A stretch of DNA of 64,000 bases from Cristatella mucedo (taxonomy: Eukaryota > Bryozoa > Phylactolaemata > Cristatellidae), in contig WPIO01000005.1 in the NCBI GenBank assembly GCA_009760855.2, positions 13,382,001 to 13,446,000 on the forward strand. Reading direction: 5' to 3'. The notes under the pieces are model-generated. The model saw only the letters and a program-made list of their open reading frames with translations. It did no database searches and was not told the DNA's origin. Below, piece by piece: positions 16,601-19,600 of this stretch. The number at the start of each line of letters is the position of its first letter. Positions within the stretch are counted from its first letter, which is position 1. Made by a program: the position numbers and the translations under genes.

Positions 16601-19600
16601 AGTGAAAAAGGAAGCCCTGGCTTTTCACAACTTTTGAGTGTAGACACGGGGAAGACTTTGAAATTGGCTATATCGTCGTCAGATCCAGACTTTTAAAGTG
16701 GCATTCAAGCCTGCGCTTGATACCATGCATCCTTTGAAGTTTTGTGGTACATAAATTAAAAGGAATCTCCTTGACTCTACACACGGACAGAATGTACGGC
16801 AGCATGGTAAAGTTTTGACTTCACTGCATCAGCGAAGGTATCGAGGCTGTCGGCCGAGTCTGTTAATAGACCAAGAAAACCTGCATCACAGGCAGATTTC
16901 AAGGATCCAAAATTTTTATTTCAAGTCATAATTACTACATCTCGCGATGCAGAGTGCCGAGCTGGTTTGGTCCAGCGCTTAAGGTGCCCGCCCCGACCAA
17001 GGTATGGCTGAGGTCGTGGGTTCGACCCCGGAGGTATATGTGAAGCGCCTGAATAGTGATTAAGTTCTCTTATGGTGCTATACAAATGAATTATATTTAT
17101 TTAAATGAATCATGTTTATAAAGTAAGCCACAAATTTTGAATGCCATTCGGCACTAGTGCTCTAGCGCAAATAGAGTCCACCGGCCGGCCAATCACTTGC
17201 CCGGTGACCATCTCTCCGAAATTAATTTGCTACTCTAAAGTTATTCTAAGACGATCATTCTATACTTACTTATTCTAAAAATATTAACTCTACCTAAATT
17301 GTATATGAATATGTAGCCCAGATTCTTGCCTCGCAAAGCCATGTAATATTCCATTACTTCACTCCCGTCGAGCCTATGCTGAGGTAACAGCTTTGCAGTT
17401 GTTGTCTTGCTAATATATTTTCAGGTATACATGCAGGTATGCACGAATTAAGAAAATGCCTTGTCATGAATTCTCGACCGTATGAAATTTATGCTCGATG
17501 CTTGATAAAACAGTCCGCCTTAGAGTAATAGATCATTATTAATTATTAATAAATAATTACTGTACTAAAGGGTGGCGGAATTAGGAAGGTTGAGAATAGA
17601 TCAGAATCATTTTTCCAAGTAGGGAGGTAGTGTGGCCGAGCGGTCTAAGGCGCTGGTTTAAGGCACCAGTCTCAGCGGTTCTCAGCCTTCCTTTTTCCGC
17701 CACCCTTTAATACAGTTCGTAATGTTGTGGCGACCCCAACCATAAAATTACTGTGTGCAAAATGTGGAAATGCGTGTTTTCCGATGGTCTTCAGGCGACC
17801 CCTGTGAAAGGGTCGTTCGACCCCCAAAGTGGTCGCGACTCACAGGTTGAGAACCACGGGTGTAGAGGTACCTATAGCTGTAGCTGATCTACTCAACAGC
17901 ATTATGTTTCTACGGGGGATAGTTAAAAGCAAATAGCCTTAGATCTTGATTATTTGCTTCTAAATAAAGAACTCACACGTAATCATAAACCCGGCCTATT
18001 ATCTCTAGTTCCTTAATGACATTAGGTTTGCCGGTAACAATTAGGCTCATATTATGGCCATTCAATTTGATTACAAGTGCCCTTCTAGTCCTAGGCAAGG
18101 ACGATAGTAAAAAGACACTGGTGCAATATATTGCGACTACTGGGAATGCATCGTAGATAGAAAGCTGTGAATAAGGTCGATTTAATGCGTTACATAGCTC
18201 CAACAATAAAAGCAATAAAATTGCTGATCCAGCGAATCAAGCAAAGGGCGTCGTGAGCATGAAACGGAACATCATTCACGATGCGGCTTAGCTTTGACGT
18301 TCGCTGGCTGGCTTTCCCATCGTTCGCACTGCTGGCAAGGGCCTTGTCTCGTGAGAGCTGACGCATCTGCAGTCCCAGCATCAAAGCGAGGCTGAGGTGG
18401 CTCTGTGAACTGAGACTCCTGCATGCTCGCTCTGCGGAGAAAATGAGTGAGCGGTAGCGAGCGTTGCATTAGTAATGATGCCGCTACTTGTTCAAAAAGA
18501 GACAAAACTAGTGCGAGCTCAGTACAAAGAGTCATAGAGCACTAGCAAGCTAATTACAACATGAATTCGAGCACATGCAGCCTAAAGCATGCGCACATCT
18601 AGGCACAGATCAGCTGGAGCCTGAGTAGGTGCTGAGTCGAAGACTCGCAGACGATGCTTTCGCATGCATCTAATGCTTGCTTGTCGGGGCAGATTGCAGA
18701 AGCATCACTATTATGGCTGAAGCTTCAGCTCCGAGAAACCTGAGCCAGAGAGAGTCGGTGCTCAGAGGCATCGCTGAGCGCGAGGCCACGGAGCGAGGAT
18801 GGAGCTGGCGCTCCCTGCTAACCGACACGATCAACACGCACTGTAAGTGCTCGCTTTCAATGCAAAGCCCTCATTCGTCGTGCCGCTGGCCGCCGTGCGC
18901 AAAACTACTCGTCACTCAAAGTCACTCGCCGAAAGCTCCTTGCTCATTGTGAGCGCCGATAGAGCGTAGATGCTCATTGTGAGCACCGACAGAGCGTAGA
19001 TGCTTGTTGTGAGCACTGACAGAGCGTAGGTGCTGGCCTGGTGGCAAGTCGCTAAAACTATCATTTAAAAGAAAATCTAAACTCGTGCAACGTCTGCGGG
19101 CATCGACGACTTAGATGGCGTACCTTCATTGCTCTCAGAGTCCAAAACTACGCTCACCAGAGCTGACTCACTACTAAGAGCTGCGTTCACTTGACAGTTT
19201 ATCAGTCAGACACGGGTGCGGCTAGAGAGCTTCTCGACGCTCTACTCATTGCTCACGGTCGTGCGTCGCCTTCACTTAATACTGCGACTGGAGGAGTATG
19301 CGTGCGGGCGGGCGGCACGGGACGGGACGGGACGGGACGGGGGGCCAAGCCAAGACGTGCATTCGTGTATGCTATAATAGCCAGCCAGTACGTTCGTATT
19401 TGCTGTCCGCACTGCCATCGCTCTCGTTGCAGCCTTCGGCTACTTGGCCTGGCTGTTCGCAGTCGTGCTCGCCTATATTTATAATGTGTTCGGCATAATT
19501 TTGAGAGCCGCCTTCGACATCTACTACACAGAGGCCAACATGGGCGCGTGGCTGGCCGCCGACTACGTGTGTGACGCCATCTACTTGCTCGATCTTCTGC

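What the first reader, a model, noticed from the sequence alone, without database searches (positions are those of the whole stretch)
17562..17859. SPIN-like hAT MITE, a family known for horizontal transfer between phyla
The element at 17673-17859 matches, over several internal phrases and both termini, what I remember of SPIN non-autonomous hAT elements. These are known mainly from tetrapods and some invertebrates and interpreted as horizontally transferred. Its presence in an animal with this repeat profile could extend that host list or date a transfer.
Basis: partly seen in the sequence, partly recalled or inferred. Interest (0 to 1): 0.75.

Follow-up and report, generated by a model that had tools for sequence, protein, structure and literature searches.

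The report
SPIN jumping gene in an invertebrate
A short DNA transposon in this invertebrate genome looks like a member of the SPIN family, best known from mammals and reptiles, which makes ancient transfer of the element between distant animals the likely explanation.

Summary
Confirmed. Window 17673-17859 is one of 40 scored copies (2203 first-look candidates) in its 572-Mb genome. It is a hAT MITE: 187-bp consensus, 8-bp nnnTAnnn target duplications (20 of 39 copies match at 7 or 8 of 8). A recalled URR1 interior, mostly absent from the window element, hit 40 scored host loci; of 10 fetched, 8 have both MITE ends, and the interior consensus agrees at 80 of 85 columns. Three 2.96-3.29-kb relatives carry a broken hAT transposase. 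Copies lie about 0.086 from consensus (n=6), full-length copies 0.165-0.175 apart. COX1 reads by the invertebrate code. Horizontal transfer is the best explanation but untested against other genomes, and the SPIN reference is recalled. The flank 17559-17672 is a local scar: an inverted 38-nt element end plus half a tRNA-Leu, seen together nowhere else among 41 matches. A new host for a known kind of element.

The parts
17673..17859 (+). SPIN-type hAT MITE, full length (both ends present), 187 bp
   Evidence: 39 other copies aligned; consensus 187 bp; window copy 13 substitutions in 186 sites, K2P 0.073
17673..17752 (+). 5' block of the element (consensus 1-81), shared with longer elements of the same family
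   Evidence: BLAST to L116-L125 (from base 1 in 9 of 10) and L126-L128 (3 of 3); recalled rodent URR1 5' end 76/79 against the host consensus
17766..17859 (+). 3' block of the element (consensus 95-187), shared with longer elements
   Evidence: to the last base in 8 of 10 longer copies and 3 of 3 full-length ones; recalled 3' end 85/85 against the host consensus
17860..17867 (+). GTGTAGAG, right-hand copy of an expected nnnTAnnn target duplication; left-hand copy missing
   Evidence: fits the family preference (T4 in 31 of 39, A5 in 33 of 39 left flanks); left flank ACCAGTCT does not match
17559..17596 (-). inverted 38-nt fragment of the same element's 5' end, truncated on both sides
   Evidence: matches element ends elsewhere at 92-95%
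17625..17673 (+). 5' part (about 48 nt) of a tRNA-Leu(AAG) gene fused to the element's left end; the last base is shared with the element
   Evidence: 95-98% to intact tRNA-Leu genes in L049-L053

Best explanation
It is a non-autonomous member of the SPIN group of Buster-type hAT transposons in an invertebrate genome. A ~3-kb SPIN-type master element entered this lineage, most likely by horizontal transfer (inferred). Its transposase recognised the CAGNGGTTCTCA ends and subterminal blocks, moved elements by cut and paste (inferred from the family), and inserted them at nnnTAnnn sites (shown). Internally deleted derivatives, including the 187-bp form (consensus 1-81 joined to about 95-187) and 300-640-bp forms (shown), were mobilised in trans (inferred) and multiplied to hundreds or thousands of copies. 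The three full-length copies seen have a broken transposase, so the family looks extinct here (inferred from three). The window copy lies upstream of a CNGB-like channel exon. Its left flank was replaced by a patch of an inverted element end plus half a tRNA-Leu gene, most simply filler DNA from break repair (inferred).
For: Family: 40 scored of 2203 candidates; 463 exact 19-mer termini against 0 for the reversed control. hAT structure: 20 of 39 copies with 7 or 8 of 8 matching flanking bases, T4 31/39, A5 33/39; also 4 of 4 complete copies in a separate sample of six. SPIN/URR1 identity: recalled termini 76/79 and 85/85; recalled interior hits 40 scored loci, E down to 2e-26; of 10 fetched, 8 have both MITE ends, one (L121) has only 42-81 and 95-166, one (L122) lacks the 3' block; interior consensus 80 of 85 columns. 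Master: L126-L128, 2956-3288 bp, with MITE ends at both sides and a broken transposase matched by the host's own hAT protein L109 in 2 of 3 copies (best E 1.4e-10) and by a recalled generic hAT transposase in 3 of 3 (best E 3e-40). Invertebrate: COX1 fits AGR=Ser, ATA=Met, TGA=Trp. Literature: SPIN is placed in the Buster family, and TcBuster duplications are nnnTAnnn (PMC3499496, passages); a SPIN-like hAT of ~1000 copies in a snail (PMC5440852, passage).
Against: No deposited SPIN or URR1 sequence could be searched; the reference letters are from memory. 0 exact hits to four patterns in prokaryote and viral collections, which says nothing about animals. Pfam gave no match above a cut-off for 7 transposase fragments (best E 0.022 to an unrelated family, then PF05699 0.043). 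19 of 39 copies have flanks matching at 6 or fewer of 8, and the window copy itself has no left duplication. Horizontal transfer was not tested by comparison with other genomes. Host species unknown.
Confidence: 0.85

Rival explanations
1. It belongs to a sister Buster-type hAT family that shares termini with SPIN but is not SPIN itself.
For: Buster elements are reported to share about 106 bp of terminal sequence with one another (PMC4298943, passages); the SPIN reference here is recalled.
Against: The match holds over whole 79- and 85-nt end blocks at 161 of 164 and extends to an interior stretch (80 of 85 columns).
Confidence: 0.1
2. An old hAT family inherited vertically in this lineage since before the split from vertebrates.
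For: Copies are fairly diverged (0.066-0.104, n=6); the transposase is broken in the three full-length copies seen.
Against: Non-coding sequence at 98% to recalled rodent elements (161 of 164) could hardly survive hundreds of millions of years of neutral drift; full-length copies differ by only 0.165-0.175.
Confidence: 0.04
3. The whole stretch 17559-17859 is one composite mobile unit, a tRNA-SPIN chimera such as a SINE or fold-back element.
For: Inverted arms flank the 5' part of a tRNA gene, which would carry a promoter box (promoter role recalled).
Against: Of 41 matches to 17556-17680 only the window itself holds both parts; 11 hit the tRNA part alone and 29 the element end alone, one of these being the window element itself (40 of 100 candidates scored).
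Confidence: 0.02
4. Vertebrate contamination of the assembly.
For: SPIN is best known from tetrapods.
Against: The copy sits in a 13.6-Mb contig near a diverged CNGB-like gene; copies with their own target duplications lie on many contigs, most of them megabases long.
Confidence: 0.01

Closest known systems
SPIN non-autonomous elements / rodent URR1 (hAT, Buster family)
   Same: End blocks, interior stretch, 8-bp nnnTAnnn duplications, internally deleted derivatives of a ~3-kb master (SPIN/URR1 sequence recalled)
   Different: Invertebrate host; the abundant 187-bp form lacks the URR1 interior and joins consensus 1-81 to about 95-187; one 3-nt gap and 2 substitutions in the interior consensus
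SPIN-like hAT of the snail Biomphalaria glabrata (~1000 copies, no intact transposases detected in the assembly; PMC5440852 passage)
   Same: Invertebrate host, similar order of copy number, broken transposase in the copies seen
   Different: The window genome gave no mollusc-type haemocyanin match (no control rang, not conclusive), so I could not decide how near the two hosts are
SPIN_NA_12_RP / SPIN_NA_13_RP of Rhodnius prolixus (PMC11614815 passages)
   Same: Invertebrate SPIN elements attributed to transfer
   Different: That paper puts the Rhodnius transfers within 50 My, with up to ~98.1% identity to vertebrate elements (quoted for four families together); copies here are about 8.6% from their consensus (n=6)

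Membership tests
hAT superfamily | 8-bp target site duplication | tested here: met
   20 of 39 copies match at 7 or 8 of 8 (8 of them at 8/8), chance 0.0004 per site at equal base frequencies; the window copy itself lacks the left one
hAT superfamily | short terminal inverted repeats CAGNG...CNCTG | tested here: met
   consensus ends CAGTGGTTCTCAACCT / CAGCGGTTCTCAACCT
hAT superfamily | related full-length element encodes hAT transposase | tested here: met
   L126-L128: recalled generic hAT protein matches 3 of 3, host L109 protein 2 of 3, young host hAT L063 0 of 3; Pfam fragments below cut-off
Buster family of hAT (contains SPIN) | nnnTAnnn target preference | tested here: met
   T4 31/39, A5 33/39; preference stated for TcBuster in PMC3499496 (passage)
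SPIN | high nucleotide identity to SPIN consensus beyond the terminal repeats | tested here: inconclusive
   met against recalled URR1/SPIN sequence (76/79, 85/85, 80/85), but no deposited reference was searchable
SPIN | transposase groups with SPIN transposase | not testable with these tools
   I had no SPIN protein to compare; copies broken
Horizontally transferred element | identity between hosts far above neutral expectation, patchy distribution | not testable with these tools
   no other animal genome to search; identity to recalled rodent sequence only

The most novel reading that the evidence does not exclude
This invertebrate lineage was a bridge or reservoir host in the SPIN wave: it carried active ~3-kb SPIN masters at about the time tetrapods were invaded, and its copies are basal to, or interleaved with, vertebrate SPIN.
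Probability: 0.2. Interest if true: 0.7.

Novelty: new member of a known kind. Interest (0 to 1): 0.5.

Why it matters
SPIN is a classic case of a DNA transposon crossing between animal phyla, and invertebrate hosts are the missing links in its route. This genome holds full-length relics, a deletion series and many datable MITEs, so the timing and direction of transfer become testable once the species is named and compared with vertebrate and snail copies.

Tried and rejected
Exact patterns of the element in GTDB contigs and IMG/VR: 0 hits. Primer-like phrases in papers as an independent source of rodent sequence: one search gave 0 papers; one search listed 28 of 29 papers and one search listed 13 of 13 by words of 11 to 14 letters; none was opened for this and I treated them as chance. 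PF05699 hits as possible autonomous partners: 30 top loci (young hAT) and 16 weaker loci, 46 of 138 matches, had no SPIN ends; nor had 7 loci taken from 100 matches to a recalled hAT protein (L109-L115). Full-length relatives were found only through the interior of the longer element L120. Host naming: COX1 was judged by eye against recalled conserved residues; ATA falls on 12 and AGR on 11 codons, AAA on only 2, so the exclusion of echinoderm and flatworm codes rests mainly on ATA=Met. Mollusc haemocyanin PF14830 gave 0 matches and rang in 0 of 14 controls; haemerythrin PF01814 gave 0 matches and rang in 7 of 14 controls; neither is conclusive, since short exons may be missed. The arthropod cuticle family PF00379 did not complete. 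The first divergence figure (0.059) was set aside as biased, since those 39 copies were the nearest to the window copy; the six were chosen by an exact 5' 19-mer, which still lowers the figure somewhat. Pace 2008, Gilbert 2010 and 2012 and Arensburger 2011 are not held. Three more papers (PMC5791352, PMC5331948, PMC3513734) named SPIN only in their reference lists.

Full report
What is there. Window 17673-17859 is a 187-bp element with hAT-type ends. The window lies in contig C550 of a 572-Mb, 688-contig genome, G000. A search of that genome scored 40 of 2203 candidates: the window copy and 39 others at 88-91% identity over nearly the full length. An exact 19-mer from the element's end occurs 463 times and its reversed control 0 times. 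The 2203 is a first-look figure, not a verified copy number.

Element structure. I fetched the 39 other scored copies and aligned them. The consensus is 187 bp with ends CAGTGGTTCTCAACCT and, reversed, CAGCGGTTCTCAACCT. Of the 39, 8 have identical 8-bp flanks and 12 match at 7 of 8; the other 19 match at 6 or fewer. Position 4 is T in 31 and position 5 is A in 33 of the 39 left flanks. This is the nnnTAnnn preference reported for TcBuster in PMC3499496, which places SPIN in the same Buster family (passages).

Is it SPIN. I found no SPIN sequence in the collections that I scanned, and the primary SPIN papers that I looked up are not held. I therefore used rodent URR1/SPIN letters recalled from memory, as a lead to be tested. 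The recalled ends match the host consensus at 76 of 79 and 85 of 85 positions, better than they match the window copy (67 of 79 and 81 of 86). The stronger test used a recalled URR1 interior that is mostly absent from the window element. It hit 40 scored host loci (103 first-look), 81-93% identical, over up to 85 nt. I fetched 10 of those 40. Eight of the 10 carry both ends of the MITE; L121 has only consensus 42-81 and 95-166, and L122 has the 5' block alone. The 8 complete ones are 304-642 bp long, and 5 of those 8 have flanks matching at 7 or 8 of 8 (my reading of the printout). The interior consensus of 13 sequences agrees with the recalled one at 80 of 85 columns, with 2 substitutions and one 3-nt gap. 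Chance or terminal-repeat similarity cannot explain this.

The master element. The interior of one longer copy (L120) hit three pairs of sites about 2.6-2.9 kb apart. The three fetched are 3288, 3110 and 2956 bp long, with MITE ends at both sides. Two of the three have flanks matching at 7 or 8 of 8 (my reading). On the strand opposite to the MITE as drawn they carry pieces of a hAT transposase broken by stops and frameshifts. The host's own Charlie-like protein (L109) matches 2 of 3 (best E 1.4e-10), a recalled generic hAT transposase matches 3 of 3 (best E 3e-40), and the host's young hAT protein (L063) matches 0 of 3. Pfam gave nothing above a cut-off for 7 fragments (best E 0.022, an unrelated family; PF05699 0.043).

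Age. The 39 nearest copies average K2P 0.059 from consensus, but that sample is biased. Six copies chosen by an exact 5' 19-mer range from 0.066 to 0.104, mean 0.086; two of the six are incomplete, and the four complete ones all have flanks matching at 7 or 8 of 8. The three full-length copies differ from each other by 0.165-0.175, consistent with one burst. The host's neutral rate is unknown. At the marsupial rate quoted in PMC3621081 (3.21e-9 per site per year, passage) 0.086 would mean about 27 My, an illustration only. SPIN entered several mammals 15-46 My ago (PMC5857283, passage).

The host. COX1 on contig C688 (a profile match that reads through 11 TGA) fits AGR=Ser, ATA=Met and TGA=Trp, with AAA on only 2 codons. 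The CNGB-like exons at 19381-19770 and 26413-26650 match solved CNGB channels at best at 47 and 37 bits. I infer an invertebrate, not a vertebrate, and most likely not an echinoderm or flatworm (codes recalled). I could not name the phylum.

The left flank. The right flank GTGTAGAG fits a target duplication, the left flank does not. Left of the element lie about 48 nt of a tRNA-Leu(AAG) gene; nine of nine fetched matching loci (L049-L057) hold a tRNA-Leu by ARAGORN, 7 AAG and 2 TAG. Further left is an inverted 38-nt fragment of the element's end. Of 41 matches to 17556-17680, only the window holds both parts (40 of 100 candidates scored). I read this as filler DNA at a repaired break, which is inference.

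Mechanism and verdict. Shown: a large MITE family, a deletion series, three decayed full-length relatives, nnnTAnnn insertion. Inferred: cut and paste by a trans-acting SPIN transposase, arrival by horizontal transfer, present extinction. SPIN in invertebrates is already known (PMC5440852, passage; PMC11614815, passages), so this is a new member of a known kind in an unnamed host. I make no claim that it is unreported.

Noticed in passing
G000 loci L058-L087 (e.g. L063): A very young hAT family: 55 sites with the same dimerisation-domain score of 76.8 bits, many ORFs of 635-642 aa without stops (one of 1947), mostly 99% or more identical to L063 over ~2.2 kb in the 30 loci fetched; no SPIN ends. 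Probably active recently.
   Followed up: partly
L109-L112, L114, L115: A Charlie-like hAT of about 2.7 kb, roughly 4-8% different between copies, no SPIN ends.
   Followed up: partly
contig C688 (L088, L092): Mitochondrial contig of 21,008 bp, GC 0.44-0.47 in the parts seen; order COX3-ATP6-COX1-ND3-ND1 on one strand with a ~2.1-kb tandem duplication between ND3 and ND1 (gene names other than COX1 by eye).
   Followed up: partly
window 19381-19770 and 26413-26650: Exons of a CNGB-like cyclic nucleotide-gated channel; the SPIN copy lies ~1.5 kb upstream of the first.
   Followed up: no
window 47550-48812 and 50076-50840: Reverse-transcriptase-like ORFs (PF00078 in the first; the second not tested) in LINE-like repeats, up to about 88-89% alike for the long pairs in the window.
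   Followed up: no
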